Translations under genes and position numbers: made by a program
Notes under the pieces: model-generated
Databases searched by the model: none
The model's input: only the letters and a program-made list of their open reading frames with translations
Told to the model about the DNA's origin: nothing
Part shown: positions 2,579 to 64,000 of the stretch, one piece after another
Layout: the number at the start of each line of letters is the position of its first letter
Position numbering within the stretch: the stretch's first letter is position 1
Assembly: GCA_010015805.1 (NCBI GenBank)
Contig: ML978141.1
Span: forward strand, 211,078 to 275,077
Direction of reading: 5' to 3'
Length of the DNA stretch: 64,000 bases
Source: Rhizodiscina lignyota
Taxonomy: Eukaryota; Ascomycota; Dothideomycetes; Aulographales; Rhizodiscinaceae

Positions 2579-4786
2579 ATGGATGACTATTCTGAGTATA
2601 CTGGAATATTCTTCCCTCCAAAAGTCAAAAGACATCTTCGACCGTTCTATCCGTATCTCGAGAAAGAGGGCAGCACCCATGCCCTCGAGCATCGAGCGCC
2701 GGAAGTACCTCACGGTATCAACCTCGAGACACTCAAGACTTGGATTAAGACTTGCATGAACACACATGGTAATCACTGCAGCAACCGGAATGCCTCGGCG
2801 TTTGGGAAACCAGTGTGGCTCATTGATGTTGTGCGCGCATGTCTCGTGCCCGCCGACACTCACTGCTATCTTGCCTTGAGCTACGTATGGGGCGCGGTTG
2901 AATGTGCATCGCTCACACTGGACACGCTTGAAGCTCTCCAGGGGCATGAATCTCTTGCTAAAGTCTCCATACCTCGAACTATCAGAGACGCCATAGATTT
3001 GACACATCGATTGGGGCACCGGTACCTTTGGGTCGATAAACTCTGCATAATTCAAGATGACATGGAGGAGAAGAAGTCTCAAATCCAGGCCATGAGGGGA
3101 GTCTACGCCGGAGCTTATTTGACGATAATTGCAGCGCAAGGCTCTGATGCATCACAACCGCTCTACCCTGACCAACTTGACACCACGGATGCTGAGGTAA
3201 TATGCGTACAGCAGCAACTTCAATACGGGAGAAAGAAACAGCTGTTCGGGTCTAAGTGCGATCAAACTGGAGATCATCATGGAGAAGATTCTCAAATGCA
3301 ATCTGTCGAGGATATGATCACAGATGTCACCGGAAGTGACTTTGAGACCGCTTTTACCGAGAATCGAGGAATGGTCGACGATCTCATCGGCGGCATGAGT
3401 TGGGAAGAAGATTGCTACTCCCCTAGGGGCAATACACCGCCGGACTACGAAAACACCAATGAGCTGAAGGCAGCACTTGACAGATTTGGCCCGCAGACGT
3501 GGCAGCGGCTTATCAGTGAAGGCATCATACAGCGTCTGGCCGTGGAACTAACACAGTCGACGTGGTATTCCAGAGGATGGACATTTCAAGAGTACCTCTT
3601 TTCCCCAAGACGCCTTGTATTCAACGGAAATACGGTAAATTGGGAATGCCATTGCGCCGCGTGGCACGAGAACCAACAACACATCACAGCGAGGCAGTGC
3701 TACCACAATGGTACGAACGACGTCTTGGGCGTGGACACGACTGCCTGGCCGAATCTCTATCGATTGGTGCGAATAATTTGCCTGTTCAACCGCCGCTTCC
3801 TGACGCGTCCGGAAGACGTCCTGGATGCTTTTGAAGGGCCGCTGCTTTCGTTCCGCTCCGTCTTTTATAGTGGCTTCATTGCTGGACTGCCCCAGATGTT
3901 CTTCGATGCGGCGCTTCTGTGGCAGCCTTACTCCTCGCTCACCAGACGGAAACATTATGAAGAATCGTCTACTCCTGACACCGCCCTTCCATCCTGGTCG
4001 TGGATTGGGTGGCAAGGAAATCTGCATTCGGAGAGCTGGCTGGCATGTTTCGACTACGCCATACAAGTCAACAACTGGAGTGGTGCCATAGTCCCTTCAT
4101 CGACTAGATCGACCGTGACATGGTCTTGGTCAACGTCGACGAATGGCCCAGCACAACCAGTCATCGTGTCCGCAGACGAGTTCCGAAAGAAGTACTCGGA
4201 TAGGCATGAGCCATTGCCTGAAGGTTGGTCACATTCCGGAGACAACCATTTCCTGTGGCATAACCCGGACAAGTTCGAACCATTTCAATACTCACTTCCT
4301 AATAACTATCAACCATTTAAATATCCAATTCCGATGATGGATTCCAATTCACAGCTCTCGCCTTCAATTCGCGCAGGCTTCCTTCATTGTCGTACGCGCT
4401 GTACCATCCTGAAAGTCGGGAATCTGCTAAGGGACATTCCGTCGGTACGGCACGGATGTGTGACAGCGATACTCGTGCGTGGTGATGCCGTCAACACCTC
4501 CGTCGGATACCTGAGGTTAAATGAAGACCCGGACGCTGCCGAAACTCAGGTTGGAGACGTCTGCGAGCTGATCGAACTCTCTTCAGGCGAGCAGGAAAAT
4601 GGGCTTCGGCATGCTCAAACACTTGACTGGGAAGGGGGAAAGAGTTTTCTTGATATGGAGAGCTTCTTCAATGTCATGTGGATTGAGTGGAAAGACAATG
4701 TAGCATACAGGAAGGCCGTCGGGCGCGTAAGGGAGAGCGTTTGGCGAGACGTTGAGACAGAGGAGGTTGATATTACGCTAGGCTGA
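2579..4786 (+). CDS. HET-domain (heterokaryon incompatibility) protein, 735 aa
   Basis: A single-exon frame with all hallmarks of a HET domain. ALSYVWG is at about residues 99-105, YLWVDKLCIIQD at 149-160, and a Y..A.LTIIAAQGSDA block at about 177-191. Ahead of it is the usual 'W...C...H..C' segment (residues 55-67). Further in come the WYSRGWTFQEYLFSPR segment and an ALPSWSWIGW motif, both common downstream of HET domains. HET proteins trigger cell death when genetically different hyphae fuse; the domain is related to TIR-like folds. Partner and allelic status cannot be told. It lies convergent with the 805-aa gene (184 bp apart). The length is typical of large stand-alone HET proteins, and nothing suggests truncation. 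Confidence 0.9.
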   Translation: MDDYSEYTGIFFPPKVKRHLRPFYPYLEKEGSTHALEHRAPEVPHGINLETLKTWIKTCMNTHGNHCSNRNASAFGKPVWLIDVVRACLVPADTHCYLALSYVWGAVECASLTLDTLEALQGHESLAKVSIPRTIRDAIDLTHRLGHRYLWVDKLCIIQDDMEEKKSQIQAMRGVYAGAYLTIIAAQGSDASQPLYPDQLDTTDAEVICVQQQLQYGRKKQLFGSKCDQTGDHHGEDSQMQSVEDMITDVTGSDFETAFTENRGMVDDLIGGMSWEEDCYSPRGNTPPDYENTNELKAALDRFGPQTWQRLISEGIIQRLAVELTQSTWYSRGWTFQEYLFSPRRLVFNGNTVNWECHCAAWHENQQHITARQCYHNGTNDVLGVDTTAWPNLYRLVRIICLFNRRFLTRPEDVLDAFEGPLLSFRSVFYSGFIAGLPQMFFDAALLWQPYSSLTRRKHYEESSTPDTALPSWSWIGWQGNLHSESWLACFDYAIQVNNWSGAIVPSSTRSTVTWSWSTSTNGPAQPVIVSADEFRKKYSDRHEPLPEGWSHSGDNHFLWHNPDKFEPFQYSLPNNYQPFKYPIPMMDSNSQLSPSIRAGFLHCRTRCTILKVGNLLRDIPSVRHGCVTAILVRGDAVNTSVGYLRLNEDPDAAETQVGDVCELIELSSGEQENGLRHAQTLDWEGGKSFLDMESFFNVMWIEWKDNVAYRKAVGRVRESVWRDVETEEVDITLG

Positions 4787-4970: not shown

Positions 4971-7490
4971 TCAAAGCCCAGTCCGCTCAACCTCCTCATT
5001 CCTGAAACCCTGAGTGAGAATAACCACGCTCACACACGCCGCGTACGCCTCTCGAATCGCGCAAGCCATGCACGTCTCCCCAATTCTCGCGACCACTGCA
5101 CTAACGCCCGAATGCGCACACCAAGCGCGGGCGAGGACCTCATTGTCGCTCACGCCGAGCGCTTCTATTGCAAGTACTTGCTCGAGACCCGAATATGCAG
5201 GTTGAAGTGGTGCTGAGAGGGCCATCTCATCGTCACCGTCCGTACTGTGGGGCTCGGGGTCTCGAGGGAGGTATGACGTCTCTGTGGGTGAACTTCTCCC
5301 ACCGCTTCTGCCATCACCGTCACGCCCAGACGCAGAGCCGGAAGCTGTGGAAGCTGACGAGTGTCTGTGGGAGCGCGGACAATTGCGGCGACCCCAGTCT
5401 TTGATTTCCATGAGCCCATCGTCAACCTTGACGCATTTGTACGCGTAATCCCAGAATAGGACGTGAGGCCCCTGATGGCACGGAAACGCCGCGATGAAAT
5501 CAACGTCATATCGGAGAGAGAGCGGGTAGCTCACACTCGGCTCGTACGGTCTGCTGAATGCGAAGACGATGGAAGCATCCCATGTCAGAGGTCTTTGGAA
5601 GTCACCGCGCGAGGGTGACGGTGGTGCTTGTTGGTCCTTGATCGGTTTGAAGCAGAGCCTCTCTACGCGAATTACATCGGTGACCTCGTCGAGCTCTGGC
5701 ATGAGGATATCGTAGTCGCTGACGGGATACTCGTCTGCTGTTGGGCCAAGAGGTACGGTTCGCTCGCTCATTGTTTGAATATCGGTTGGAAGAATACGGG
5801 CGTCCAGCGAGGGTTTTTGGCGAATGATGGCACATTCAGTGCGTTTGAGGTCTAGGGAAGAATTACATGGTCCAATCCAGCCCGCAACTTGGTTAACTCC
5901 ACGAGCTGCACCAAGCACTTTGCCGACGATGCATTTGTACGACCAGTATGTGTTGGCACGGTACTGGAATCCGGACGAAGGCCGCATATGGGTCAGAAAG
6001 TTGAGCACATCGCCAGAGCCCTCATCGCAATCAATGAGAGAGTTCATCAGTAACCACGGAAGTGTCGGACCGGGCAAGACGACGCCAGTAAACCAGGACA
6101 TGGCATCTGCAGACCGCTCTTCGACTCGCTTCTGCGAGCGATCTCTTTCGTCCAGAGTATGAAGGACATCTTCCATGTTTGGCCACTTGAGTATTCGAGC
6201 GAAAGTTTTCAGTGCCTCTTTTTGACGGTCCTTGCTGCGGAGCTCAAAGCTAAACGACTTTCCTTTCCCTGACGCTGCATCGCGTAATTTAGATATCGAC
6301 ATGTTCTCTAGCCAACGCTCGGCAACAGCCATATCCCACCCAATCTTTGGCGGCAGAGCGAGAAGAAGTTGGCGTTTTGCTGACTCATGGTGCTGGCTCG
6401 CATGAATGCGCAGGTGTAGCTCGATGGAAAGTAGTAATTGATGAAAGAAATGCTTCTTGCGATCTTGGTCTTGACTGTCGAAGAATTTGGCCACGACATG
6501 GTTCGCCGGCTTGCTGAAATCGATCCATTCAGGATTACTGAGTACAGCGATCAAATCTACTATCTGTCGCTCTAGTCCGTAATGTGGGTCGCTATGTTCC
6601 TCGGGATCATAAATCAATTTGCCATATAGCGAGTTGTAGAGCTCGTCAACATCCTGATTAGTGGTTAGATAAAGTCCTTTGCAAGTCCAATTAAACTTAC
6701 ATCTTCGTCAAGACCAATTTCCAATTGCCGCAGCCTTTCGAGAATAGCTGCTAGCTTCATCTTCCTTGGCTTTACACTCGATCCGACTTGCAGCTTCGGG
6801 CTGAGGCTGCCAAACTTGCTCACACGATGTGTGGCCGTCGTAGTTCCAGGTATTCTTCCAAACGCAAAAAGCATCGCTGGCTGTTCCAAAGCCATCCAAG
6901 GAAACGCGTTGTCCACAGCACCCGTGATGCTTAGAGAAATGTGTTTGAATGCATCTGACTGAAATGGCGCAGCATCCGTTCGTCTGTAGTGCTCCGACTC
7001 CATGACAACGAAGAACCTGTGATGTCCTGGGGCATTACGTATCTCATCCCAATATCCCTTGAACGTAGATGCTCCAGAGACTATCACGTCCTCGGCCTCT
7101 CTCGGCGTAAGAACCGCATCGGACTTGAGCCCGCGAGGTGGCCATTTCCTCCTGGTTCTGAACTCCTCCAAGGACGTAACTTGAGCGTGGGAATTTCGTC
7201 TCGGTGGGGTGTATGTCGGATGAGGAAAGGAATGTGGGCCATCCCTGGATGTGGGTCGGCTGTGGCCGCTGTAGGCACTGAGTGATGGACGTGGGGGAGC
7301 TGGATTGGAATACGTGCGAGGAAACGGTCGAAACTAATCAATGTCAACACACTGTATTTCCTCATTGCGTCTGGTCATCGAGTCGTACTGGAAGCTCTCG
7401 CGGCTCAGCCCATCGCGCATCGAGCTCTCTTCGTCGTCTTTCCCACCAACCGAAGTCGTTGTTCATTCCTCTTGCGGGTTGTGTCAGCAT
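4971..7490 (-). CDS. Conserved fungal protein of unknown function, 805 aa, three exons
   Basis: Exons are 7490-7389, 7333-6701 and 6653-4971. Introns are 55 bp (GTACGA donor, TTAG acceptor) and 47 bp (GTAAGT, CTAATCAG), both in phase 0. The start ATG at 7490 opens a short Trp/Arg-rich exon (GWWERRRRELDARW). Next is a Pro/Ser/Arg-rich, probably disordered segment to about residue 80, then a folded-looking central part with aromatic clusters such as GPTLPWLLMNSLIDCDEGSG. The C-terminal quarter has a Ser/Gly-rich linker and a hydrophobic last 60 residues with several cysteines. I recognise no catalytic motif and do not assign a function. The clean frame over 805 codons and good splice sites argue strongly for a real gene. 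Confidence 0.75.
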
Positions 7491-8290
7491 TTTATTGAGG
7501 ATGAGAAATAAACAGGAAGAGGATCAGGCTGAAATATAAGACGCCAGCCTTATGGCCGTCGAAAGACTTGTAACCATGCCGGTGTGATTTCCTTCTTAGT
7601 CGCTATTCGACTTACACATTCAGGGCATATCATGAAAACTGAAAGCTTCCGATGAAGCTCCGACGAAGCTAGCTCGACTTAATCACTCCGTCACTCACTG
7701 CTGCAAGTGAGGCCGGGACAGCGTGTCACGACGCGGCGTTTGGTGTTTCGGTGAAGGCAGTTGCTGTCCTGCATCCCACGAACGAGACTCGACGCGAGTT
7801 TGAATGAAGGCGACACTGAGCTCTGAAGCAGATGAGCAAGAGAGATGTCCTGATGCATCGAGGTTGAGTCCGTCTTGTCCAGGCAACGACGCGTCGAGGG
7901 CCCACGTTGCACTCCACACGTGAGCTCCATCCGCGAATCAATTGCGGGTCGGACGGCTTCATCTCAACCCTAACCCTCATAGGGCTGGGAATTCTTTGGG
8001 CATCAGAAGAGAGTCGGACTCATTTTCTCGTATCATCCAATTAGATACTAGAGATAATCTTACCCTGGTTCTTAACGGAGTCTCTCATTATCAAGCGAAC
8101 CAGATCAATACAGCGGAGAAGGTAGGTGAAGCTCCGTACGATCGACATTCATCGTATCGCGATATGTCGTAAACCTGGACCTGGTAGGATTGTTTGATTA
8201 AGAATCTCTGTCCTCTTTTGGGTAATTTCATCCTTCATCAATTGACTTCCATTTCCATAATAAATAATAAGGGCATCGCTCTTCGAAGAG
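7491..8290. other. Intergenic, divergent promoters
   Basis: About 800 bp between the divergent 805-aa gene (-) and the O-methyltransferase (+). The open frames here are short and overlap. Two CCCTAA-like units at about 7966-7977 are too few to be an interstitial telomere tract. Confidence 0.5.
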
Positions 8291-48359: not shown

Positions 48360-48694
48360 GACATGGCTTCTATCAGCTTGCGGGTTTTGGGATCTTGTTC
48401 TTGCCGGTCTGTCGATATGATGAAGGGCAATGTGGCTGTTAGAGGGGATGTAAGATGCAATGCATACGCAAGGGAGTTTAATACTATAGAATGCTCTTCT
48501 ATGGCTCGGATTCGGCTTAGGGCTCAGGCGCGCGGCGGGCCCGGACGGGGGAAAAAAAAGAGCGGGACGGCGAGCGGCGGGCGCAGGCAGCAGAGGGTAG
48601 GTCTTATTTACCGAATAGCTCGCGGCGTGGTAGTATAGTAAGTATGGCAAAGTTGGAGAGGTCGCCGGCGGAGAGGGCGAGGGCGGTAGGGGTG
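48360..48694. other. Transition between gene-rich DNA and RIP-mutated repeats
   Basis: The base composition changes here from GC-rich (about 48,510-48,700, with G/C runs) to TA-saturated sequence. No gene is supported, and the transcription-factor promoter must lie here. Confidence 0.5.
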
Positions 48695-49143
48695 AATTAT
48701 AATACCTACGTGACTACGAGCTAGGGGTCGAGACGAGAGTACAGCTCGCTGCGCGCGCGCGCGCGCGCGAGAGAGATAGTATATACTATATAATAATTAG
48801 AGAGAAGAGTAGAGGAGGGTATTAGAGTAGCTACGTATACCTCTTTAATTCTTACTTTATTTAAGGCCTTATACTATTTAGTACTACTTTTAAAGTAAAA
48901 GTCTAGTACTAAATTATAATACCTATATAACTATAAGCTAGAGTTAAGAGTATAGCTTACTACGCGCGCGCGCGCGTAAGAGAGAGATAGTATATACTAT
49001 ATAATAATTAAAGAGAAGAGTAAAAAGTAGGGAAAGGTATAAAGTAGCTATATATACCTTTAAATTTTACTCTATTTAAGGCCTTATACTACCTAACGCT
49101 ACTTTCGCTACTTATAGAGTAAAAGGGTAGAAGGCTAGTACTA
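48695..49143. repeat. Two tandem units of about 217 and 232 bp
   Basis: Unit 1 is 48695-48911 and unit 2 is 48912-49143; a third copy starts at 49144 and fades within about 20 bp. Both begin AATTATAATACCT, carry a CG-dinucleotide run, then a GAGAGATAGTATATACTATA segment with a palindrome (AGTATATACT), and close with AAGGCCTTATACTA. Unit 2 is more AT-rich by C-to-T and G-to-A changes, so both were RIP-mutated unevenly. It may be the remnant of a terminal or promoter repeat of the neighbouring element. Confidence 0.7.
48751..48769. repeat. (CG)n microsatellite
   Basis: An uninterrupted alternating GC run inside tandem unit 1; the equivalent run in unit 2 is at 48,963-48,976. It survives in DNA otherwise stripped of C and G. 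Confidence 0.85.
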
Positions 49144-49400
49144 AATTATAACGCCTACGTAATAAGCGCTATAGTAAAGCGTAAAGTCTTACTAGTACGC
49201 GCGTATAGCGTTAATAAAGCGGAAATAAAGGCGTAAGTAGCTACTCTACGCCTTTTTCTAATACCTAGGTTCGTACTAGTTATAGTAAAACTAGCTTTTT
49301 TTTTAGTATAGGCGGGGGTCGCTAGTACGGGCTACCTCCCTTAAAACTAGCTTTTTAGATCTCTAGTAAAACTAGCATTACTTAAAAAAAACGCGTATTT
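49144..49400. other. AT-rich spacer with short repeats
   Basis: TAAAACTAGC occurs three times (about 49,285, 49,342 and 49,367), probably part of the untranslated leader of the following helicase relic. No gene seen. Confidence 0.4.
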
Positions 49401-52264
49401 ATATCTATAATAACAAGTACGTATATTATAACTATTAGCGATAATAGCAACGATAATAGCACGCTTAGTCTATTGCCCTTCTTATAGTTTATAGAGCTAT
49501 ATAAGGTAGTTGTATGTATAGAGTATAGTAGCTACTATACCCTTATAACTCTTAACTAGTACCTATAAGACCTATACTACGTCTTAAAGAAGGATAGAAA
49601 CTACTTTACCTAGTATCTTAGGGCTTAGGGCTTAGTAAGCTACAATATTAACACTATCTAGCTAGAAGACGGAGCGCTACTAGTACCTAGTCTACTAGTA
49701 TATAAGGGCTATTAATACTTATAGTACTACTTTCGCTCTATTAATATTACTAATATATGTAAGTACTACTTTAAGGCGTATAAAGCGAAGCTAAGCCGCG
49801 GCTGTCGCTATTAGGATAATAAGCAGTTATAGTAATAGCTATATAAGCGCGTTATACTATAGACCTTATAGGTAAAACGGAATTATATCGTCTATTTTAA
49901 GGTTTCCGCCTATTATAGCCGTATTAACAATAATAGTACTACTAATAATAGTATTAGCCTTAATAGCCCTAGTAATAGTAGTAGCAACTAGGATAGTATT
50001 ATTATAAGATACTAACAAGCCTAGTAGAAATAGCTTAAGTAGTATAGTAAGGCGCTATAGAAGTAAGAGTATATATTAGAAGTAACGCTATAGCTAAAGG
50101 TAATAGGGTATTATAGCTATCTTTAAAGGCTACTAATTAACAAGCTACTAGCGTTATACAAGCTAGCTAGTATAGTAGTAAAGCTAGAGCTAGCTATAGT
50201 ATATAATAGTATTAATAGGCTGCTAAGGTAAGGCCTTAACCTCTTTAAGGGTAGTAGCTAAGAGTAGTAGTAGCTAACTAAGCTTAATACTAGGCTACTA
50301 AATACCTTCTATACGGTAGAAATCCTATAGGATCCTATTACGCTACTATAGAATAAGTAGTTAAGGTAGTACTATATAAGTATATAGTAAAAGCTTACCT
50401 ACTACTTCTATAGGGTAATTAAAGACGGGTAGCTAGTAATAGTAAAGGTAGTAAGGGTAAAAAGAGTTATTAAGAGTAAAAAGAAGAGTAGAATTAAAAG
50501 TAAGACTAAAAGTAAAGATAAAAGTAAGAGTAAAAGTAAGAGTAAGAGTAAAAGTAAGAGAGGAGAGCTACTATTTACTACTATATAATAGTAGTAGTAG
50601 TATTTTAAAAGGGCTTAGGAAGGCGTATAGTAAGTACTATTATTTAATATAAAAGTAAAGGGTAAGGAGAAAGAGAAGGATAAGAGTAGGAAGGTAAAGG
50701 GAAAAAGGTAGTAGTAACAAGAGATAAAAGAAGAGGAGTATATAAAGGTAGCGCTTAATAACGCCGTACTCGACTTTAGTATCTTACTAATATAGTAGTA
50801 CCTTAAGTAGCACGTCTTTAACTTAGCTATAGTCTTATTTACAGCTATTATCACCTAGAATAGGGGCTAAAAGGCGTAGATAAGAGTTAGTAACTATATA
50901 AGCTACCTCTTATAGCTTATCTATAATAGCTAGCTACTTATACTACTATACTATATATAGCTTATCGACCTAGGCGTTCTAGGCAGCTTTAGTAGTTAGA
51001 TTATCGCCTTCTAAGACGAGTAGCTACTTAATAACACGCCTAGGCTAGTTAAGGAGCTAAGCTTAATATAGCTACTTAGGTTTAAGATTACGCGTAATAC
51101 TATTAACTAGGCGTAGGTACGCTAGTACGCTAATAAAGAGATAATCGTCTATAAGGATATATAGCTTTAGATAGGATAGATTAAGGCGCTAATTAGGTAT
51201 AAGCTAGTAGTAGTAAGCGTAGTACTATATAAAGACCTCTACTTTAGGCTAGTAGAAGAGGAGGCTAAGGCTAAAGCTAGTATTATTCCTAAAATAGGCG
51301 AGCTAGTTAACAACTAGGATACTACTTCTTTTAGGGTATTATTCCTTACTAATATAAGGAATAAGACGCTACTATAGACTATATAGTACCTTCTACTTAA
51401 GTAGCTAAGGGTCTAGCCTAAAAAGATAAGACTACTATTTTATATAACTATAGGCAATAGCCCTAAGCCCTAGCGGCTAGATAGCGCTACTATAACATAG
51501 TATAAGGATATAGTATAGCGCTTCCTTAAGTATATTCTTATCCTCTTTTATATTAGGTCTAGCTAGCTAGTAAGGCGGCTAGAGCTACTTAAGCTACGCT
51601 AGTATAATTAGTAGGCGGATAAGTACAACCTATTTATATACGATAGCTACCTAGTCTTTATACTAACCTACTATAAGTTACTTAATATAACTAATACCTT
51701 AAGGTTCTTAGCGCGCTTCCTACTACTATAGGCTAGTAAGCTACTTCTACGCTTCCTTACGCTAGTATAGCTATTTAGGAGGTAGCTATTAGCTAAGACT
51801 AGAATACTACTAGTAGTAAGTAAGTATCTCTAGTATAGTAGGTAGTTATACTAGTCTAAAGAGAGGATAATAAAGGTACTCGCTATAGAGTTACTATAAG
51901 TAATTAGAGTAGGGCTAATAGTATAGGCCTAAAGGTAGCTAGTAGTAGGCATTATAATTAAGAAGTTCGCTAGCTAGGGCTACTAGCTTAATATTAACTA
52001 GGTAAGTAACAAGTAGGCTAGTACTAAGTATAAGAGCGCTAGAAGTGTAAGTAAAGCTAGTATATTTAAGGCGCTCTACTAGTAGGCCTTATATACGCTA
52101 TAAACAGGTAATAGTACTTATAGTAGTATAGTTAACTTCTAGACAGGCCTAACTAATACTAGCCTATAAGAGTACCTTAAGGCAAGCTAGATATAGTATA
52201 CTCTAGTACTTAGTAGAGGCGTAGGGGCGGTAGGAGGAGCTATAGACGTTACTACTATAGGTAT

Positions 52265-52314
<50 letters not shown>

Positions 52315-53648
52315 TAGGCTAAAAGCAGGCTAAGTAGTACTCTATAAACGACTAGCTACCTTTTACAAAGCGAATCGCACTATATAGAGGGTAAGAGCTA
52401 AGGCGGAATGCTACTAGTAGCTATAAAAGGGTCTAAAGCGAATAGAAGGCGCTTTAAGTACTACAATAGATATATAGGCCTTATACTAGCTACTAGTTAA
52501 AGGTATAGGCGGTAGTAATACGCGTAGTCGTTAATAATAGGCTAGAGGTCGTTACGGTCCTTAGGATAAGAGAGGGGAAGAGCCTACTATTTATACTACT
52601 AGTATACCTACCTAAGGCTAGTATAATAGTACTAGTAGTACCTCTTATCGCGCTAAAGTATAACGTTATATAGTAGTATAAGCTAATAGGGGTCGAGTAT
52701 AACGTGTAGGCTAGGGCTTAAAGAGAGTCTCTTAAGCCTAGCTACCTACTAGTTATAGTATTCTTAGACTAGGCTATACTTAAGCCCTTTCTTACGTACG
52801 TATACTATATTAACGCTAAGAGTAGCCTTAGTTAGGTAGTACTAAATAAGGCCTACTTAGTTTATATAGTAGCTAACTATAAGAAGAAGATAAGGCTAGT
52901 AAAGTAGCTATAAGCGTTATAGTACTAGCTTATATGTCTATTAGCTATACTACTACTAGTAATAGAAGGTAACCTAGCTAAGGCGCTACTACTATAGTAG
53001 CTAATAGTTATAAGGTTAGTAATAGTAAGAAAGGACTTAGAGTACTATATTATTAAGCTAGACAGCTTATAAGGGTTAGTAGTAGCTAGTAAAGGTAGTC
53101 TAATAGTAAGTATAGTAGTATAGATTAAGGTAGTACTAGGGTAAAACTAGTTTAATAAGGGCGGGCGTAGGCTAGTATAAGCGATTATATACTATAGGAC
53201 CTAAGGTAAGGCTAATAGGGTAGTAGAAGCGATTAGCTATCTAGTATACTACTTAGACTCTAGTATAGAAGAAGAGAAGGCGGCTATCCTTAAAGACTAG
53301 TTAAAGGGCTATTAGTTAGTAGTACTAGTAGTAATAAGCACTTTTAAGGCTAGTATTAACTATAGCTACGTACAAGTAGTCTTCTATATTAGCAAGCTGT
53401 ATAGTATAGTAGAGTTTACGTAGGAGGTTAGTAGGGTAGGTAGGAATAGTAGTAGTAGAGTTTATACTATCTTTCTTATAGTAGGATAGTAGTAGTAGGT
53501 ATAGTAGGCGTAGTAGGTATAGTAAGAGGGTAGTAGTAGTAGTAGTAGTAGTAGATATTTAGTAGAGGAGCTAGTACTAAAAGGCGTAAAGGCGATAGCT
53601 TACTATCTAAACTAGCTATAGTACTAGCTAGTAGTACTAAGTAAGTTC
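49401..53648 (+). pseudogene. Heavily RIP-mutated RecQ-type helicase relic, lineage 1 (telomere-linked-helicase-like)
   Basis: Stops interrupt every frame, but reading through them on the + strand recovers the architecture of fungal TLH-type proteins. Near 49,510-49,660 there is a zinc-finger-like segment (VVCIEYSS, then Y/H-type residues, VLKKDR). A second at about 49,700-49,800 reads FRSINITNICKYYFKA. A long degenerate middle follows. The helicase domain begins with REGKSLLF at 52,569-52,592 (Walker A, first G changed), then VVPLIALKYN. A DEAH-type motif II reads NKAY near 52,845. Later segments (QAIIYCRT, about 53,185; FTQEVSRVGRN, about 53,415-53,445) correspond to motifs IV-VI. Substitutions are of the C-to-T / G-to-A kind expected from RIP. 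It is not a functional gene. The start is approximate; the end is set by the next element. Confidence 0.75.
52264..52313. repeat. (ACT)n trinucleotide tract
   Basis: About 50 bp of perfect ACT/TAC repeats in the helicase relic. It probably encoded a low-complexity linker before decay. Confidence 0.8.
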
Positions 53649-53930
53649 CTAACTCGTACTATACGACTAGTTCAAGTCGAACTAATTTGAACCTGCTAAC
53701 AAATTTAGCGCCGGTAGGATAAGGAGGGGTTCGGACCGATTTAGGGTTTAGAGTCGAACCCGATTTGCGAGAAAGCAGCAAAGTAGCGCCTAGGGGCGGG
53801 TTTTAAGCGTATAGAAATATAGTCCTAGCCGCGCCTGACCTAGCTATACAGTTAGAACTATTAGGGTTATAGTACGTTGTTACGTTGTAGCCATAGTCTG
53901 CCCGCGGTATGCAGGAGTTTTTGTATTCGC

Positions 53931-53942
53931 GGTCACGTGATC
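53931..53942. promoter_or_regulatory. GGTCACGTGATC palindromic element, copy A
   Basis: A CACGTG (E-box / Cbf1-CDEI type) core flanked by T and A. It is identical in copy B (57,415-57,426), although it contains CA and TG, the prime RIP targets. A binding role is inferred only. Confidence 0.35.
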
Positions 53943-54138
53943 TGAGTAGGATTAGTAGTTTAGCGTAGTACGTAGTAAGTAAAATAAGTCGCGGTCGGAC
54001 GTAGTAGGCAGGTAGGATAGTAGGTAGTATATTGTAGTTAAAGGCGGGTAAGCTATAGTTAAATATAGTAGGTTAATAGGGTAGTACGCGCCTGTTTCCG
54101 TAGTACGAAAGTAGTTTTGTAGTCGTATGTTTTAAGTA

Positions 54139-54153
54139 GGGCGGGCGGGCGGG
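54139..54153 (+). other. G-quadruplex-type motif, copy A
   Basis: GGGCGGGCGGGCGGG, four G3 runs with single-base loops, in the 5' non-coding part of the element. It is the same in copy B at 57,623-57,637. Confidence 0.6.
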
Positions 54154-55970
54154 CGTGCGCGCGTAGCGCGGCTAGGGGCTAAAGCGTCGAAGCTACGAAA
54201 TAAGAAAAGAGGGAGAAGATTAGGGATTTAAGTAGATAATAAAACGTATTATTAAGTTTAGAAGACTATTTAATAGTTGCCCTAGTTATTAGTTAAGGAA
54301 GAACCTATAGTAGAACTAAGGAGGGAGGGAGATTAAAAGATTAGGGGAGAGATAGTAGGTTTTAGCGATTATTTTAAGCATTTACTATAGTATAAGGCGA
54401 TTATTTGCAGGAGGTATAGGTACACTATTATTAGGAGTAGTATAGGTTTATATTTAAGCTAGAAGCATAAGAGCAAGTTAATAGTAGACGCGTATAGGGC
54501 GATTATAGTGGAGGTAAGTAGTATCGTAGTAGAAGACATCGTAGTTACACGCGAGGAGGTCTAGTATCTAGAGCCTATATTAGTACTATTAGCCGGTTTA
54601 TAGTTATAGGACGATAGTTATTAGTATAACGAGTGCGAATATATACACTACACACGGAAGGATATATAGAAGTATTATAGGTAAGAGTATAGGTAGGCGA
54701 ATAGGCGTAGCTATAGTAGGGCGACGAGGTTAGCTATTATAGAGGCGTAAGAGTACGAGATATAGACGGTAGGTATATATTACTAGCAGTTTTTTAGGAT
54801 GAGAGGGTAGTAGTAGTTATTTAAGGTAACGGCGAGGCTAGGGGGTAAGGGTAAGGGAGATAAAGGAGAAAGTATAGTTAATAGGGATAAGTAGACATAG
54901 TACGTTATGAGGCGGTAGATAGAGAGGGTTTTTATATTAGTAGATAAGTAGTTAAAGCGAGAGGCTAAGGAGAAGAGGGCGATAGTCTAGGCTAATACGA
55001 ATAGATACGTACTATAGACGTAGTTAAGGAGGGTAGGATAGGTAAGGTATTTAGAGGGGTTTAACTATAGGTAGTTAGTTAAGATAGCGGAGATGCTAGT
55101 AGATAGAGATAGGAGCGATAGTAATAGTAATAGTAGTAGTAGCGATAATAGTAGTAATAATAGTAGTAGCGAAAGTAGTAATAGCGAAAGTAATAGCGAA
55201 AGTAATAGCGAAAGTAGTAGTATAATAGATGCGAGAAGAGAGTAGGAGTTAGTTAGGGTGTATAATATAGTATAGATAGTTATTTAGGAGGCGTAAAAGG
55301 TAGTATAGCTAGAAGTTGTAGGTTTTACAGCTGTATATTATGTAAATAGGAGAGAGACGGGCAAGATATCGAATAAGAAGCTGTTAAACGTGAGGTAGTA
55401 GGGTAAGACGATTAAAAGGTACGCTAAGGTTTAGTATAAGGTAGTTTATTATATTTAGAGGATATAGGGTTTACTAGAGGCGATAAAAGGGGGGAGGGGG
55501 GGGAGGAGTAGTAGGAGTAGTAGTAGTAGCGACAGTAATAGCGGGTTAGGGGACGCGTTAATAGGGCTAGTAGAAGAGGATTTAGAGGAAGATTTAGAAA
55601 GGGATTTAGGGTTAGATAAGGAGATGCGTATAGAGATCGAAAGGGCTAGGCGAGAAGGAAAAAGGCGAGGAGGGAGGGACAGGAGAGAAAAAGTAGAAAA
55701 TAGTATTAGGTAGAAAAGACTACCGTATAGATTGACTAGTAGACAGGTTAGAGTATTAATATAGGTTAGACAGGCTATTAAGCGTAAAGAGGAGCAGGGT
55801 AAGAAGGTATAGGGGCGGGGGCAAGAGTAGGAGTAAGAGTAAGAGTAAAGAGAGGAAGAGAAGGAAGGAGATAAAGAAGATAGTAAGGTAGAAGTAGCGA
55901 TATTAGAGTTTTTAATCGTATTATTAGACTATAATATATAAGACGACGTATATATAAATAGTATTATTAG

Positions 55971-56090
55971 CGGATTGGCGGTTTTAGGGTTGGATGAGGA
56001 TTGCGCGTGGAAAGGGCCGTCCAGGGCGACGCGAGCATTGTCAGCGGTCGTCACAGTCGCCAGGATGTTGGTTTTATACCGCGCGAAGTT
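55971..56090 (+). other. Island with little RIP damage in copy A
   Basis: Here copy A keeps CA, TG and CG where copy B (about 59,464-59,583) has TA. The frame is open (VLGLDEDCAWKGPSRATRAL) while the flanks are full of stops. It lies in the middle domain of the helicase element. Confidence 0.7.
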
Positions 56091-57414
56091 AATAAGGGAA
56101 GTAGTAATTAAAGAGATAAGGGAAGAGCAAGGTTTTAGCCGGGTAGAGGCATTAAAAAAGGCGCCGACCCATTTCTAGTTAGCGTAGGAGATAGTACACA
56201 GGTTTATAATATTAACTGTATTTAGCGGTAAGCTAACGCCGATAAATTAGGTTTTAATGTTAAGGACGTACGGGTTAAAGGTATATTATAGTATAGTAGC
56301 AGATGGAGTAGTAGATTAGGTCGGCGACAGGTTATTATATAGCTATATTAGTTTTAGTATACTAGATTTACGGGCGATAATCTATAGGTTAGTATACGCG
56401 TTATAGTTAAGGTTTAAGAGGAGGTTGTTATTATTACATGTCAACGACGAGGGCCGGCCTAATAGCGCGGATACGACGATACGGTTACTACTAGTAAAGA
56501 TAGACTAGATAGTAGATAATATAGCGGAGATAAGGGTCGGGTAGAGTTTCGTAGACGATAGGCGGAATAGAGAGGCGTTTAGCGGCGTCGACGGTAGTAA
56601 GTAGATAGTAGACAGAGTTATAAGGGAGTAGTAGTTACGCGAGGAGTTTGTCGATACTAAGGCTACATACGATATAATCTATAGAAGCTAGTAGTAGTAG
56701 CGGCGGTAGTAGTAGTAGAATAGTAGCGATCCGGTTATATAGAAGAAAGACAGGATCTAGTAGTATAAGAAGGATTTAGACGTGTATAGGCAGGATTTAT
56801 TAGTATTAATATATATAACGAGAGGATAGCCGGCTAGGGGCATAGAGATCGTCATAGTACGGTATAAGAATAGCGCGGACAGCGCGGGTAGAGGCATTTT
56901 CGTAGAGGATAGGATAGTAGTATATATAGTATAGTACTATAAGGGCGTAGGGTTTAGCGGTAGAAAGAAGGTAATCTACTAGTATTTGCTACATAAGGTC
57001 GGGTCGTTGTTATTATACGATTTATAGTTGGTAAGGCCGTTTTAAGATAGGTTAGAGAGTGTTTCTACCGTTGTATTAATAGTAGTAGCGGTAGCGGCAG
57101 CGGCAGAGGTCGAAGGAGATAGTAGTAGCAATATCGCTAACTCGTACTATACGACTAGTTCGAGTCGAACCGATTTAAACCTGCTAACAAATTTAGCGCT
57201 AGTAGGATAAGGAGGGGGTCGGACCGATTTAGGGTTTAGAGTCGAACCCGATTTGCGAGAAAGTAGCAAAGTAGCGCCTAGAGGCGGGTTTTAAGCGTGT
57301 AGAAATATAGTCCTAGCCGCGCCTAACCTAGCTATATAGTTAGAACTATTAGGGTCACAGTACGTTATTGCGTTATAGCCGTAGTCCGCGGTATATAGGA
57401 GTTTTCGTGTTCGC

Positions 57415-57426
57415 GGTCACGTGATC
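57415..57426. promoter_or_regulatory. GGTCACGTGATC palindromic element, copy B
   Basis: Identical to the element at 53,931-53,942 in copy A and at the same place relative to the unit start, despite heavy mutation around it. Confidence 0.35.
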
Positions 57427-57622
57427 CGAGTAGGATTAGCAGTTTAGCGTAGTATATAGTGAGTAAAACAAGTCGCGGTCGGATGTAGCAGGTAGGTAGG
57501 ATAGTAAGTAGTATATTATAGTTAAAGGTAGGTAAGCTATAGTTAAATATAGTAGGTTAATAGGGTAGTACGCGCCTATTTCCGTAGTACGAAAGTAGTT
57601 TTGCAGTCGTGTGTTTTGAGTA

Positions 57623-57637
57623 GGGCGGGCGGGCGGG
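57623..57637 (+). other. G-quadruplex-type motif, copy B
   Basis: The same four-run G tract as in copy A, in the 5' non-coding part about 490 bp after the unit start. Confidence 0.6.
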
Positions 57638-59775
57638 CGTGCGCGCGTAGTACGGCTAGGGGCTAAAGCGTCGAAGCTATAAAATAAGAAAAGGGGGAGA
57701 AGATTAGGGATTTAAGTAGATAATAAGACGTATTATTAAGTTTAGAAGGCTATTTAATAGTTGCCCTAGTCGTTAGTTAAAAAAGAACCTATAGTAGAAC
57801 TAAGGAGGGAGGGAGATTAAAAGATTAGGGGAGAGATAGTAGGTTTTAGCGATTATTTCGAGTATTTACTATAGTACAAGGTAATTATTTATAGGAAGTA
57901 TAGGTACGCTGTTATTAGGAGTAGTATAGGTTTATATTTAAGCTAGAAGCATAAGAGTAAGTTAATAGTAGACGCGCGTAGGGCGATTGTAGCGGAGGCG
58001 AGTAGTATTATAGTAGAAGATATCGTAGTTACGCGCGAGGAGGTCTAGTATCTAGAGCCTACGTTAGCGCTATTAGCTAGTTTATAGTTATAGGACGATA
58101 GTTATTAGTATAATAAGTGCGGACATATACACCGTACACGGGAGGATATATAGAAGCATTATAGGTAAGAGTATAAGTAGGTGAACAGGCGCGGCCGCGG
58201 TAGGGCGACGAGGTTAGCTATTATAGAGGCGTAAGAGCATGAGATGTAGACAGTAGGTATACATTACTAGTAGTTTTTTAGGATAGGAGGGTAGTAGTAG
58301 TTATTTAAGGTAATAGTAAGGCTAGGGGGTAAGGGTAAGGGAGATAAAGGAGAAAGTATAGTTAATAGGGATAAGTAGATATAGCGTATTACGAGGTAGT
58401 AGATAGAGAGGGTTTTTATGTCGGTAGATAAGCGGTTAAAGCGAGAGGCTAAGGAGGAGAGGGCGATAGTCTAGGCTAACACGAATAGATACGTGCTATA
58501 GACGTAGTTAAGGAGGGTAGGATAGGCGAGGCATTTAGAGGGGTTTAACCGTAGGTAGTTAGTTAAGATAGCGGAGATGCTAGTAGATAGAGATAGGAGC
58601 GATAGCGATAGTAATAGTAGTAGTAGCGATAATAGTAGCGACGATAGTAGTAGCGAAAGTAGTAATAGCGAAAGTAATAGCGAAAGTAATAGTAAAAGCA
58701 ATAGCGAAAGTAGTAGTATAATAAATACGAGAAGAGAGTAGGAGTTAGTTAGGGTGTATAATATAGTATAGATAGTTATTTAAGAGGTGTAAAAGGCAGT
58801 ATAGCTAGAAGTTATAGGTTTTATAGCTGTATATTATATAAATAGGAGAGAGACAGGCGAGATATCGAATAAAAAGCCGTTAAATGTAAGGTAGTAGGGT
58901 AAGATAATTAAGAGGTACGCTAAGGTTTAGTATAAAGTAGTTTGTTATATTTAGAGGACGTAGGGTTTACTAGAGGCGATAAAAGGGGGGAGGGGGAGGA
59001 GGAGTAGTAGGAGTAGTAGTAGTAGCGACGGTAATAGTAGGTTAGAGGACGCGTTAATAGGGCTAGTAGAAGAGGATTTAGAAGAAGATTTAGAAAGGGA
59101 TTCGGGGTTAGATAAGGAGATGCGTATAGAGATCGAAAGGGCTAGGTAAGAGGGAAGAAGGTGAGGAGGGAGGGATAGGAGAAAAGAGGTAGAAAATAGT
59201 ATTAAGTAGAAAAGACTACTATATAGATTGACTAGTAGACAGGTTAGAGTATTAATACAGGTTAAACAGGCTATTAAGCATGAAGAGGAGTAGGGTAAGA
59301 AGGTATAGGGGCGGGGGTAAGAGTAGGAGTAAGAGTAGAAGTAAGGAGAGGAAGAGAGAGGAGGAGATAAAGAAGATAGTAAGGTAGAAGCGGCGATATT
59401 AGAGTTTTTAATCGTATTATTAGACTACGACGTGTAGGATAACGTATATACAAACGGTATCGTTAGCGGATTGGCGGTTTTAGGGTTAGATAAGGATTAT
59501 ACGTAGAAAGGGCCGTCTAGGGCGACGCAAGCATTGTTAGCAGTCGTTATAGTTACTAGGATGTTAGTTTTATACTATGCGAAGTTAATAAGGGAAGTAG
59601 CAATTAAAGAGATAAGGGAAGAGCAAGGTTTTAGCTAGGTAGAGGCATTAAAGAAGGCGCCGACCCATTTCTAGTTAGCGTAGGAGATAGTACACAGGTT
59701 TATAACGTTAACTATATTTAGCAGTAAGCTAACGCTAATAAATTAGGTTTTAATGTTAAGGACGTACGGGTTAAA

Positions 59776-59990
59776 GGTGCATTATGGCACGGCGGCAGAC
59801 GGAGTGGTGGATTGGGTCGGCGACAGGTTGTTGTACGGCCACATCAGTTTCAGCATGCCGGATTTGCGGGCGATGATCCACGGGTTGGTGCACGCGTCGT
59901 GGTTGAGGTTCAAGAGGAGGTTGTTGTTGTTGCATGTCGACGACGAGGGCCGGCCCAACAGCGCGGATACGACGACGCGGTTGCCGCTAG
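59776..59990 (+). other. Island with little RIP damage in copy B
   Basis: About 215 bp rich in CA, TG and CG with an open frame (HGLVHASWLRFKRRLLLLHV). The aligned part of copy A (about 56,290-56,505) is mutated at nearly every such site. Both edges are abrupt. Confidence 0.8.
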
Positions 59991-62223
59991 TAAAGATAGA
60001 CTAGATAGTAGATAATATAGTAGAGATAAGGGTTAGGTAAAGTTTCGTAGACGACAAGCGGAATAGAGAGGCGTTTAGTAGCGTTAATAGTAGTAAGTAG
60101 ATAGTAGACAGAGTTATAGGGGAGCGGCAGTTACGCGAGGAGTTTATTAATACTAAGGCTACGTACGATATAATCCGCAGAAGCTAGTAGTAGTAGCGGC
60201 GGCGGCGGTAGCAGAATAGTAGCAATCTAGTTATATAGAAGAAAGATAGGATCTAGTAGTATAAGAAGGATTTAGACGCGTATAGGCAGGATTTATTGGT
60301 ATTAATACATATAATAGGAGGACAGCTAGCTAGGGGCATAGAGATCGTCATAGTACAGTATAAGAACAGCGCGGATAGCGCGGGCAGAGGCATTTTCGTA
60401 GAGGATAGGATAGTAGTATATATAGTATAGTACTATAAGGGCGTAGGGTTTAGCGGTAGGAAGAAGGTAATCTACTAGTATTTGCTACACGAGGTCGGGT
60501 CGTTATTATTATACGATTTATAGTTAGTAAGGCCGTTTTAGGACAGGTTAGAGAGTATTTCCACCGTCGTATCAATAGTAGCGGCGGTAGCGGCGGCGGT
60601 AGAGGTTAAAGAAGATAGTAGCGGTAATATCGCCGGTAACAACAGTAGAAATATCGCTAGTAGTAGTAGAAGCAGCTGCAGCCTGTTTTTATAGGAGCTA
60701 AAGCTAGAACAGGCGTAGTAGGGCCTAAAGATAAGAGGGAGAAGACGGCGAGAAGGAGGAGGAGGAGGAGGAGAAAGGGATAATAGAGAGGATAGATAGT
60801 AGCCGCTATCGATAAAGACGGTGTATTAGGACACGGACAGGGTTAGAAAGGCGATCTAGAAGGCTAGCATAACATATTTAGGGGTAAGGATAAACATTAT
60901 ATATTAGAGGTATAGTAGCAAGGCGATTTATAGGTAGTATATTAATAATAAGGCTATTATCTAAGCTATTACGAGAGGAGATAAGGACGGTAGGTAGTAA
61001 GGAGAGGACAAGGGGGGGGAGGGGCAGCATGTTAATAGGTTTAATTAAAGAGAGGTCGGATTCTATTTGTAGACAGGCTACAGCGCGTAGATAAGAGAGG
61101 GTATATATAGTAGGGGCGTCGATAAGTCGCTATTCTATACTATAGCGTAGCGGGTCATGTTTTAGAAGGTTAGTAAGGAGTAGCATAAGTTTTTAATATT
61201 CGAATCGGCGTTGTAGGAGCCGGCTAAGTAGGGTTTAGTAGCGGCCCGTAAGAGGTAGCAGGCGGAGGAAGAAGAGTTTAGGAGGTAGGTAGTAATATAA
61301 AAGATAGACATAAGGAAGTAGTTGTAGAAGTTGGTTAGGCTAGACGCAGAGTTTAGAGGGTTATAGGAGCTAGCGATTAAGGTGATTATATAGTAGAAAA
61401 GCCTAGTAGTAGCGATTATAGCGACAGGAGAGGGTAAGAGTTTGTTATTTATATTACTAGCGTTTTATTCTACGGGCATAATAGTAGTAGTAGTACCGTT
61501 AATTATGTTAAGGCAGGATATAGCGGCTAGATGTAAGGTAGTAGGGATAGAGTGCGTAGAGTAGAGTAGCGCGAGGCCGTACGAGTAGGCGTCGATCGTG
61601 TTCGTAACGCCGGAGTTAGCGGTAAGTATAGTATTTAGCTAGTTTTTAAACAGGTAGAGGGCGATAGGCTAGTTAGATTAAGTAGTAATTAACGAGTGCT
61701 ACGTAGTATTAGATTCGAGTGAGGGGGGCGGGTAGAGGAGTTAGGTTTTGCGGTTAAGGGAGTTAATCGGGGTAGAGATACAGATAGTATTTTTAATAGT
61801 GATATTACTACCGGCGGACGAGCTAGAGTTTAAAAGATTAATAGGGTTTAGCGGTAGTAATAGTAAGAAGAGAGGCGGTAGTAGCGGTAGCGGTAGTAGG
61901 GAGAGCAATAGTAGTAGTAATAGAGAGAGTAGTAGTAGTAGTAAAAGAGAGAGTATAGAAGGAGAGGGAGAGGGAGAGAAAGAGGGAGAGAGAGAGTATT
62001 AGTTTAAGGCGCCGACTATAAAGAAGAATATTAAATACTAGGTAATTTTTCATAGCTAGGCGGAAGAGGAGGAGACAGTAGTTAGATTAGTAGAAGAGAA
62101 GAGGGTATAGTATGTGATACTAAGCTAGATTATAGTATATTACGATACAGTCAAGAAGATAGAGAGGTTAGTAAAGGTTTTAGGGTATAAGTATTTCTAT
62201 AGAGTAGTAGGCGGTAAAGAAGA

Positions 62224-62364
62224 AAAGGCGAAGTTGTTACAGGTGTTGAAAGAAGGCACGGAGCAGGTTTTCACGGCGACAAACGCGTTGGGATTGGGGG
62301 TTGATGCGCCGACGATTAGGGTGGTCATACACGTGGGCAGGGTGAGGAAGTTGAGGAGTTTCGT
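62224..62364 (+). other. Island with little RIP damage at helicase motifs V-VI
   Basis: Open frame EQVFTATNALGLGVDAPT with normal base composition. The flanks on both sides are TA-saturated and stop-filled. Confidence 0.7.
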
Positions 62365-62884
62365 ATAGGAGAGTAGTAGGGCGGGCAGGGATAGGAGGGT
62401 ATATAAGTCGATTGTATTATAGGCGGTTAAGGTCGATTAGAGGACGGGCAAGGTTATATAGGAGGATAAGAGCTAGTAGGGGATAGAGGATAATATAATA
62501 GAGTTTGTAGATTCGTAGGGCAATAGCTAGTATAGGAGGGCGGTATTAGATAGGGTAATAGACGGTAAGAGGGATAGGAAGGGGTGTAAGGAGGGAGAGA
62601 AGGCGTGTAACGTGTGTTATAGGAGGCGATTGCAGGAGGGAGAAGGGTAGTTATAGGGGGAGGGATTGTAGTAGCAGATAGGATTGTAGTAGGTAGAGGG
62701 ATTGTAGTAGTAGAAGGGATTGTAGCAGGCAGAGGGATTGTAGCAGGCGGAATTACAGCAGGTAGAATTGTAGTAGGCGTACATATACAGCTAGAGTAGG
62801 CAGAGTAAGAGGAGAGGGAGAAAGAGGGTTATTAATAAGAATAGTAATAATAGTAGGGATAGAAGTAGGGACGAGAGGGAAAGG

Positions 62885-62975
62885 CAAGAGTTAAGGATAG
62901 AGTTCAACAGGGAGATGACAAGGCGCAGGGCCAGAGCAAAGGGCGAGAGGGTATCACAACAAGAACAGATGATTG
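62885..62975 (+). other. Island with little RIP damage in the C-terminal region
   Basis: Keeps many CA and TG dinucleotides and an open frame (IEFNREMTRRRARAKGERVS), unlike neighbouring DNA. Confidence 0.55.
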
Positions 62976-63587
62976 TAGAGCAGAGGTTAGAGGATATATT
63001 AGAGGAGTAGCGCGCGGGTTATGTATATTGTCATGCGATAGGCGATAGGGCGTACGCAGGGCACGAGTTTAAGGAGTGTTTAAGGGTAGGAAGTAAGGTC
63101 GACGTAGAGATATTTAGAGAGGTAGTTAGAGAGGTTAAAGAGGGCGTTAAGTAGCAGAGGTTTACGGGTTATTAGGGTTGTAGGGTACTATAGGGGGTTT
63201 ACAGGATGTAGGAGTTAAATAAGGTAAACAGTAGGTAGAAGTAGCGAAGGCAAAGGGTTTTCTAGTACTAGTATAGGAAAGGAGTATTAATTAAGGCGGT
63301 AGTAGCGTTATAGTACGTAAAAGGGGAAGAGTTTAAGGGGTAGGTAAGAGGGGAGAGGGGGTGGGAGCGGGAGTTTTTTAACAACAAAGGTAGGAGGGGT
63401 AAGGATATAGATATTAAGGTTAGCAATAATGACGATTTAGGGGGGTTTAAGAGGTTGTTAGTCAAGTAGTTAGGGTTTAAGGAGATAGTAGGCGGGTTCG
63501 AGAGTAACAACGCGTGCAAGGTGTTAATTCGATTCGAGTAGCAGCGTTTGTTTGTTTATTAATTGTCAGATTAAGCGGGCGAATTCA

Positions 63588-64000
63588 AGGCGATTCTAAG
63601 GCAGTTTTCAAGCATGAATTCGAGACAGCGCTAGTTGCGTAGGGAGTATTAGCGGTAGGAGAGAAGGGGGCGATCCGATAGGTATTTGCCGCGCAAGGTA
63701 GGCGAGTTGTTATAGTACGATTTAAGGTTAGTAAGGCCGTTTATAGGGTTTAAGTTAGAGGAGGTTTTTATAGCGATCGCGTCGACGGATTTAGATAGTA
63801 GCAGTAGGATTAGTAGCAGTAGGGACAGTAGTAGTAGGAGAGGTGATTAGTACGACCGTAACCGCCCCCGTTTTTAAATAGTTAGGACGATTTAAGGTTA
63901 GTAAGGCTGTTTATAGGGTTTAAGTTAGAGGGGCAAGTTTAGAGATGTTTTAGGGTAGTTTTCGAGGCGATTTCAGAGTAGTTTTCAAGTAGGAATTCTA
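63588..64000 (+). repeat. Third-copy fragment and nested direct repeats at the right edge
   Basis: After the helicase tail, 63,680-63,760 again resembles the end of the middle domain (a GELLQYDLRLVRPF reading through a stop), matching about 60,490-60,545 of copy B, so it is a fragment of another copy. A 45-bp repeat occurs at 63,717-63,761 and 63,887-63,931. A 34-bp repeat (AGGCGATT...TTTTCAAG..GAATTC) occurs at 63,588-63,621 and 63,965-63,998. The repeats are nested, suggesting serial insertion or slippage. The element runs out of the window. Confidence 0.6.

What the first reader, a model, noticed from the sequence alone, without database searches (positions are those of the whole stretch)
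49401..64000. Array of decayed telomere-linked-type RecQ helicases beside a gene-rich arm
At least two full helicase relics and two partial ones lie in one orientation across nearly 15 kb, with readable Walker A, motif V/VI and N-terminal zinc-finger-like segments. TLH-type helicases are known from subtelomeres of several fungi; an array with such complete RIP decay suggests this is the inner edge of a subtelomere or an internalised former chromosome end.
Basis: partly seen in the sequence, partly recalled or inferred. Interest (0 to 1): 0.75.

Follow-up and report, generated by a model that had tools for sequence, protein, structure and literature searches.

The report
Chromosome-end helicase genes with hidden recombinase
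The end of this fungal chromosome is a pile of mutation-killed copies of a mobile element that joins on at one fixed point, and its protein, until now filed as a helicase, also appears to carry a DNA-cutting-and-joining recombinase that could explain how such elements spread among chromosome ends.

The parts
48492..49257 (+). relic of another subtelomeric repeat ('X'), cut at its 3' side by the diverged TLH
   Evidence: 80% over 769 nt to the C10 end, 84% over about 480 nt to C6R; RIP-like composition
49258..53648 (+). TLH family II relic (divergent recombinase + RecQ helicase), 3' end lost at the junction with the next copy
   Evidence: 85% DNA identity to C1:4058313-4062728, 91% to C2:6206-9193; protein alignment 49296-53651; the C1R copy has R..E, K, R, H-9-Y and TGEGKS, EVGRAGRD motifs
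53649..57136 (+). TLH family I copy B, truncated at element position 3488: N-terminal part and first half of the recombinase domain, no helicase
   Evidence: 85-90% to copy C and nine other long copies near contig ends; P0002 35-388 at 54337-55464 and P0001 383-825 at 55696-57063; keeps R, E and K of the recombinase
53649..53696 (+). fixed 5' terminus of copy B (CTAAC..., two inverted repeats)
57137..64000 (+). TLH family I copy C, near complete, running to the contig end
   Evidence: 87-91% to C12, C28, C20 and C2 copies; tblastn hits 57821-58960, 59192-63535; 141 stops
57137..57184 (+). fixed 5' terminus of copy C (CTAAC...), joined to copy B where other copies read CTA or CCG
57821..58960 (+). 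N-terminal region of copy C (holds the OrsD zinc finger in intact relatives)
   Evidence: P0002 35-388 aligns here at 36%; OrsD is P0002 46-151
59717..61324 (+). recombinase-like domain of copy C used for the fold: R 60332, E 60341, K 60437, R 60908, H now Y 61079, Y 61106
61373..62630 (+). RecQ helicase motor of copy C: Walker K 61436, DECH decayed from 61691, PF00271 62126-62392, motif VI R 62387
62885..63535 (+). C-terminal cysteine-rich region of copy C
   Evidence: P0001 1609-1810 aligns here at 34%

Best explanation
The array is a chromosome end built by successive additions of telomere-linked elements whose single large protein is a zinc finger (OrsD) + tyrosine recombinase + RecQ helicase. 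Shown: each copy starts at the same base; it follows DNA that is cut at a different place each time; the cut nearly always lies at a CTA that the element end also carries; all copies found point outward; inner copies of arrays lack their 3' ends. Inferred: the recombinase domain recognises the inverted repeats just inside the 5' end and joins the element, at a CTA core, to a CTA near the end of another chromosome. The outer side is the telomere side, so the recipient's old distal DNA is replaced (single crossover between two ends) or later lost (after insertion of a circle). Further rounds give head-to-tail arrays of truncated copies. Also inferred: the helicase unwinds or extends the joined DNA; RIP then kills the repeated copies, as seen here; broken ends are healed by telomerase, as the C2 left end suggests, where TTAGGG starts inside the gene.
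Against: Foldseek alone gave no significant match for the domain (best E 3.5, a potassium channel), and VIA-align only re-examines Foldseek's 33 best chains. Profile comparison with single XerD and Int sequences was at shuffle level. Pfam at E up to 10 in five homologues and PHROGs at E up to 1 in three list no recombinase. The histidine of HxxR is missing in 35 of 35. C2R and one family-II start (C2L) show no CTA in their relatives of 71-77%; C10a has CTA in three relatives but not in three others of 74-77%, and C21R_B rests on one relative of 76%. The C10 junction of repeat X has no CTA. The product 1.8e-15 used, for three of ten junctions, relatives chosen because they read CTA. No copy read has an identified 3' end or an intact frame, so activity, reciprocal products and circles were not seen. 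Breakpoints come from one assembly of unknown read type.
Confidence: 0.68

Rival explanations
1. Standard view: TLH genes are host or passenger genes of subtelomeres, copied between chromosome ends by homologous or break-induced recombination, then mutated by RIP.
For: The copies found are near contig ends and outward; repair-driven copying between chromosome ends is documented in Pyricularia (PMC8381367, passages).
Against: Such copying carries shared flanks and shared breakpoints along; here the 5' base is fixed in 17 of 17 and flanks related by descent are cut at different points. It predicts no CTA rule.
Confidence: 0.15
2. Microhomology end joining: the inverted repeats at the 5' end make the element break there, and broken ends are joined by short microhomology without any recombinase.
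For: Two inverted repeats begin 5 and 19 nt inside the start; junctions share 1-4 nt, mostly 3.
Against: Hairpin breakage should scatter by some bases; 17 of 17 starts are at one base. It leaves the invariant recombinase residues and fold unexplained.
Confidence: 0.12
3. End-primed reverse transcription of an antisense TLH RNA: a chromosome 3' end in CTA anneals to the RNA's 3' end and is extended, as telomeric retroelements do in mirror image.
For: Fixed inner end and truncated outer end, 3-nt priming match, and a 47-nt restart at the C2L 5' end bounded by GCTAAC.
Against: No reverse-transcriptase family hit in the five homologues scanned; it leaves the recombinase domain unexplained.
Confidence: 0.05

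Closest known systems
Fungal telomere-linked RecQ helicases (Magnaporthe, Fusarium oxysporum TLHcr, Ustilago, Metarhizium, M. graminicola subtelomeric RecQ)
   Same: RecQ-type helicase genes, multi-copy at chromosome ends, full and truncated copies (PMC12857005, PMC4522978 and PMC11893274, passages seen); Fusarium proteins P0032 and P0034 are among the 35 homologues aligned
   Different: The recombinase domain, the fixed 5' base and the CTA junction are not in the passages seen; junction rules were not tested in those species
Crypton and other tyrosine-recombinase DNA transposons
   Same: Recombinase without reverse transcriptase; short identity between element end and target (4-6 bp terminal direct repeats in Cryptons, PMC3212892, passages seen)
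   Different: Fused to a RecQ motor, found only near contig ends, outward only, 3' end not seen; no GCR1_C hit; the word helicase does not occur in that paper's main text
Starship captains (DUF3435)
   Same: Tyrosine recombinase of Pezizomycotina mobile elements (search listing only)
   Different: No DUF3435 hit in five homologues, no large cargo seen, terminal position
Yeast Y' elements
   Same: Helicase-encoding repeats amplified at chromosome ends (passage in PMC4522978)
   Different: Y' junctions with telomere tracts (recalled); here no exact TTAGGG x3 between copies
MoTeR / FoTeR telomeric retrotransposons
   Same: Full and truncated copies at fungal chromosome ends; RIP in FoTeRs (PMC12857005, PMC8381367, passages seen)
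   Different: They encode reverse transcriptase and are bordered by telomere repeats

Membership tests
Telomere-linked helicase (TLH) | RecQ-type helicase motor | tested here: met
   PF00271 at 62126-62392, 37.2 bits vs cut-off 23.5; TLH proteins align; P0001 matches RecQ structures in the PDB by sequence
Telomere-linked helicase (TLH) | N-terminal OrsD (DUF3505) zinc finger | tested here: met
   PF12013 over cut-off, with stops, inside main-family copies at C12:901768-901968 and C5:4924-5223; the homologous stretch is 57821-58960 in the window, where PF12013 itself was not reported
Telomere-linked helicase (TLH) | repeated at chromosome ends, pointing to the telomere | tested here: met
   17 starts at 13 contig ends, all outward, none interior among 21 places found; C2 and C10 begin with TTAGGG; most other contig ends are not proven chromosome ends
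Tyrosine recombinase | catalytic R, K, R, H/W and nucleophile Y | tested here: met
   35 of 35 homologues, H-Y spacing 9
Tyrosine recombinase | H of HxxR in box II | tested here: not met
   S 14, M 9, A 6, L 4, Q 1, K 1 of 35; the RKHRH pentad is given in PMC8138268 (passages)
Tyrosine recombinase | catalytic-domain fold | tested here: met
Tyrosine recombinase | strand cleavage and joining activity | not testable with these tools
   no experiment possible
[quoted passage not shown]
   5' CTA found; no 3' end of an element identified in the loci read
Crypton | GCR1_C DNA-binding domain (CryptonF) | tested here: not met
   not among Pfam hits at E up to 10 in five homologues
Starship | DUF3435 captain | tested here: not met
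   not among Pfam hits at E up to 10 in five homologues
Helitron | HUH Rep domain and fixed A/T target (recalled) | tested here: not met
   no Rep family among Pfam hits of five homologues; bases before the start vary and the target continues CTA
Telomeric non-LTR / Penelope-like element | reverse transcriptase and telomere repeats at element borders | tested here: not met
   no RT family among Pfam hits of five homologues; exact TTAGGG x3 only at the starts of C2 and C10; shorter or mutated tracts not searched

The most novel reading that the evidence does not exclude
Telomere-linked helicases across fungi are the recombinases of a previously unrecognised class of tyrosine-recombinase mobile elements that live by capturing chromosome ends: a CTA-core recombination between the element's 5' site and any chromosome end replaces that end with the element and its telomere, so fungal subtelomeres are built and swapped by a site-specific recombinase and held in check by RIP.
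Probability: 0.4. Interest if true: 0.92.

Novelty: new variant of a known kind. Interest (0 to 1): 0.84.

Why it matters
TLH genes sit at chromosome ends of several fungi and their function is called unclear in print (PMC11893274, passage). If they are recombinases with a helicase attached, an open question becomes testable: how subtelomeres, which in several microbes carry fast-changing gene families (PMC8381367, passage), are duplicated and exchanged. It would also add a chromosome-end-specific class to the tyrosine-recombinase elements and give a simple sequence rule (CTA core, fixed 5' end) to look for in any fungal genome.

Tried and rejected
Pfam scan of the region with stops as X: nothing, in two of three forward frames. 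An open Helicase_C frame near the C1 start turned out to be an ordinary SNF2/Rad54-like gene, not an intact TLH (named by eye). The strong strand skew of the array (G about 0.33, C about 0.09) looked like one-strand mutation; between copies C-to-T and G-to-A changes are similar in number (246 and 272, C12 to copy C), and the skew is that of a purine-rich coding strand. A second mutation context (C preceded by a pyrimidine) suggested ultraviolet damage, but CC-to-TT doublets are not in clear excess (17 seen, about 15 expected by my hand calculation for family I; 10 and 2 against about 8 and 2 for the two strands of family II). Helitron, telomeric retrotransposon and Starship readings: see the membership rows. 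Profile comparison with single XerD and lambda Int sequences, Pfam and PHROGs gave no recombinase; Foldseek on the whole model and its VIA second look list only helicases in the rows shown, and Foldseek on the domain is not significant. Repeat X also has a nearly constant start (CTATGG), but its one testable junction (C10) shows no CTA. Literature: in the listed results of searches no paper joins TLHs with a tyrosine recombinase (one search listed 25 of 611, 15 of 87, the others all they found); Gao 2002, Rehmeyer 2006 and Salimi 2024 are not held. This is absence from these searches only.
Full report
WHERE IT IS. The window is G000:C21:211078-275077 and C21 has 275077 bases, so the window's last base is the contig's last base. 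The genome has 33.4 Mb in 29 contigs. A phosphofructokinase-type protein of the window is 100% identical over 97% to one listed under '[Rhizodiscina lig...' on a contig of 275077 bases; the genus is Dothideomycetes, Aulographales, with R. lignyota among its species (epithet completed from the cut name). Exact TTAGGG x3 occurs only at the starts of C2 and C10.

WHAT IS IN THE ARRAY. Composition turns RIP-like at about 48.5 kb. Three relics follow a short repeat (48492-49257): a diverged TLH (49258-53648), a truncated TLH of the main family (53649-57136) and a near-complete one (57137-64000). The two main-family copies are 90% identical at 3.5-kb spacing. Intact relatives (P0001, P0002) show the architecture: OrsD, a middle region, DEAD and Helicase_C, then a long C-terminus with conserved cysteines. 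Copy C aligns to them from 57821 to 63535. The main-family copies translated all carry many stops: 141 of 1905 codons (copy C), 68 of 909 (B), 105 of 1899 (C12R), 136 of 1898 (C28R), 111 of 1592 (C2L). Helicase_C matches at six of these ends each contain 1-4 TAG. I found no intact copy in the assembly.

WHERE THE COPIES ARE. A genome-wide DNA search with copy B lists 21 places, a lower bound. Seventeen reach the element's 5' end, at 13 of 58 contig ends (C1R, C2L, C2R, C4R, C5L x3, C10L x2, C12R, C19R, C20L, C21R x2, C25L, C27L, C28R), about 50 to 13400 bases from the contig end, all pointing outward. The other four are a diverged relic at C6R (two pieces) and two short matches in C10. Six contigs (C1R, C2R, C4R, C19R, C25L, C27L) stop about 50-105 bases into the element; five of these starts are identical over 48 bases and look un-RIPed, and the sixth differs by one step. 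I read this as assembly collapse of recent near-identical copies, which is inference.

FIXED START, VARIABLE BREAKPOINTS. All 17 starts read CTAAC at the same base; they were listed with a pattern, but the pattern-free search agrees within 3 bases for 14 of 16 non-self matches. What lies before differs. Where flanks are related, they are cut at different points: C12R, C20L and C28R share one flank sequence cut at three places; C2R and C25L share one, C5a and C27L another; C21R copy B and C1R share the diverged TLH; C21R copy C, C5b, C5c and C10b sit on main-family copies cut at about 3490, 3290, 4197 and 5330. Plain copying of chromosome ends would share breakpoints. At C2L the element runs straight into TTAGGG at about position 6066, inside the gene.

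THE CTA RULE. For 14 of 17 starts some sequence in hand continues the flank beyond the cut; C28R, C5a and C1R have none. In 13 of 14 at least one relative continues CTA, the element's own first three bases. Nine are not contradicted by any relative of 80% or more: C21R_B (its only relative is 76% alike), C2L, C12R, C20L, C10a (three relatives of 74-77% differ), C10b, C19R, C25L, C27L. In four (C21R_C, C5b, C5c, C4R) some copies read CCG or CCA, which RIP converts to CTG- or CTA-type, so the target state at joining is unknown (C4R's CCG seen by eye in the window's X copy). C2R does not fit; its relatives are 71-74% alike. Local CTA frequencies are 0.9-6.6%; the product for seven unmixed junctions is about 1.5e-10 by my multiplication (the script's 1.8e-15 for ten includes three relatives chosen for reading CTA). 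One diverged-TLH start (window 49258) also sits at CTA in its C6 relative; another (C2L) does not, with relatives of 75-77% and an uncertain start. Just inside the main-family start are two inverted repeats; all 17 copies keep them up to single RIP-type steps, and C5b/C5c carry a C-G for G-C exchange of one pair. The un-RIPed first 60 bases fold better than 99% of 500 mononucleotide shuffles.

HOW IT MOST LIKELY WORKS. Shown: TLH identity, terminal and outward placement of the copies found, one fixed start, independent breakpoints, CTA at most junctions, recombinase residues and fold. Inferred: that this domain makes the junctions; that the partner is a CTA near another chromosome end; that single crossover replaces the distal end. 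The two ends that reach TTAGGG (C2L, C10L) show no remainder of the interrupted element beyond the newcomer, apart from two matches of 66-84 bases in C10. This fits end replacement, or insertion followed by terminal loss. Copy gain could come from replicative repair or from meiotic segregation of exchanged ends; neither was tested.

WHAT IS KNOWN. TLHs at fungal ends, full and truncated, are known, in Dothideomycetes too (PMC12857005, PMC4522978, PMC8381367: passages seen). Crypton recombination through 4-6 bp repeats and circles is proposed in print (PMC3212892, passages). I found no paper joining the two in the results listed by searches; key TLH papers are not held. I file the elements as TLHs by sequence, and as working like tyrosine-recombinase elements, not as Cryptons, Starships or Helitrons.

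Noticed in passing
window 49258-64000 and sister copies at other chromosome ends: Beyond C-to-T at CpA and CpG there is a second context: C preceded by a pyrimidine. Main family, minus strand: YCY 200 of 1053 sites variable vs RCY 6 of 697; plus strand 1 of 41 vs 1 of 127, so not seen there. Diverged family, both strands: YCY 161 of 582 vs RCY 16 of 816, summed by me. No clear excess of CC-to-TT, so it may be a property of RIP here.
   Followed up: partly
L068 (C12, flank before the TLH start) and L015 (C28:33804-33980): The flank shared by C12R, C20L and C28R holds its own OrsD match with stops (C12:900706-900984, over cut-off; C28, below it), so it may be a third TLH-like relic that was itself cut by the main family.
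   Followed up: no
window 59700-60000: Part of copy C that reads much less mutated than its surroundings (protein stretch ADGVVDWVGDRLLYGHISFSMPDLRAMIHGLVHASW), perhaps a local conversion from a less mutated copy.
   Followed up: no
L010 (C2:1-10000), start of the TLH at the C2 left end: The first 47 bases of the element are tandemly doubled, bounded by GCTAAC.
   Followed up: partly
L068 (C12:900226-908225), about 7700-7900: Beyond the part shared with the window the element runs into short tandem repeats containing GGGTTAGGGA, telomere-like, near its presumed 3' end.
   Followed up: no
window 48492-49257; C10, C6, C20, C5, C27 ends: Another subtelomeric repeat with a nearly constant start (CTATGGCTCGG... 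with a TTAGGG motif nearby); in C10 it caps a truncated TLH without a CTA match.
   Followed up: partly
window 2579-4786 and 33590-35407: Two HET-domain (heterokaryon incompatibility) genes in the gene-rich arm, besides a histone deacetylase and a phosphofructokinase-type gene.
   Followed up: no
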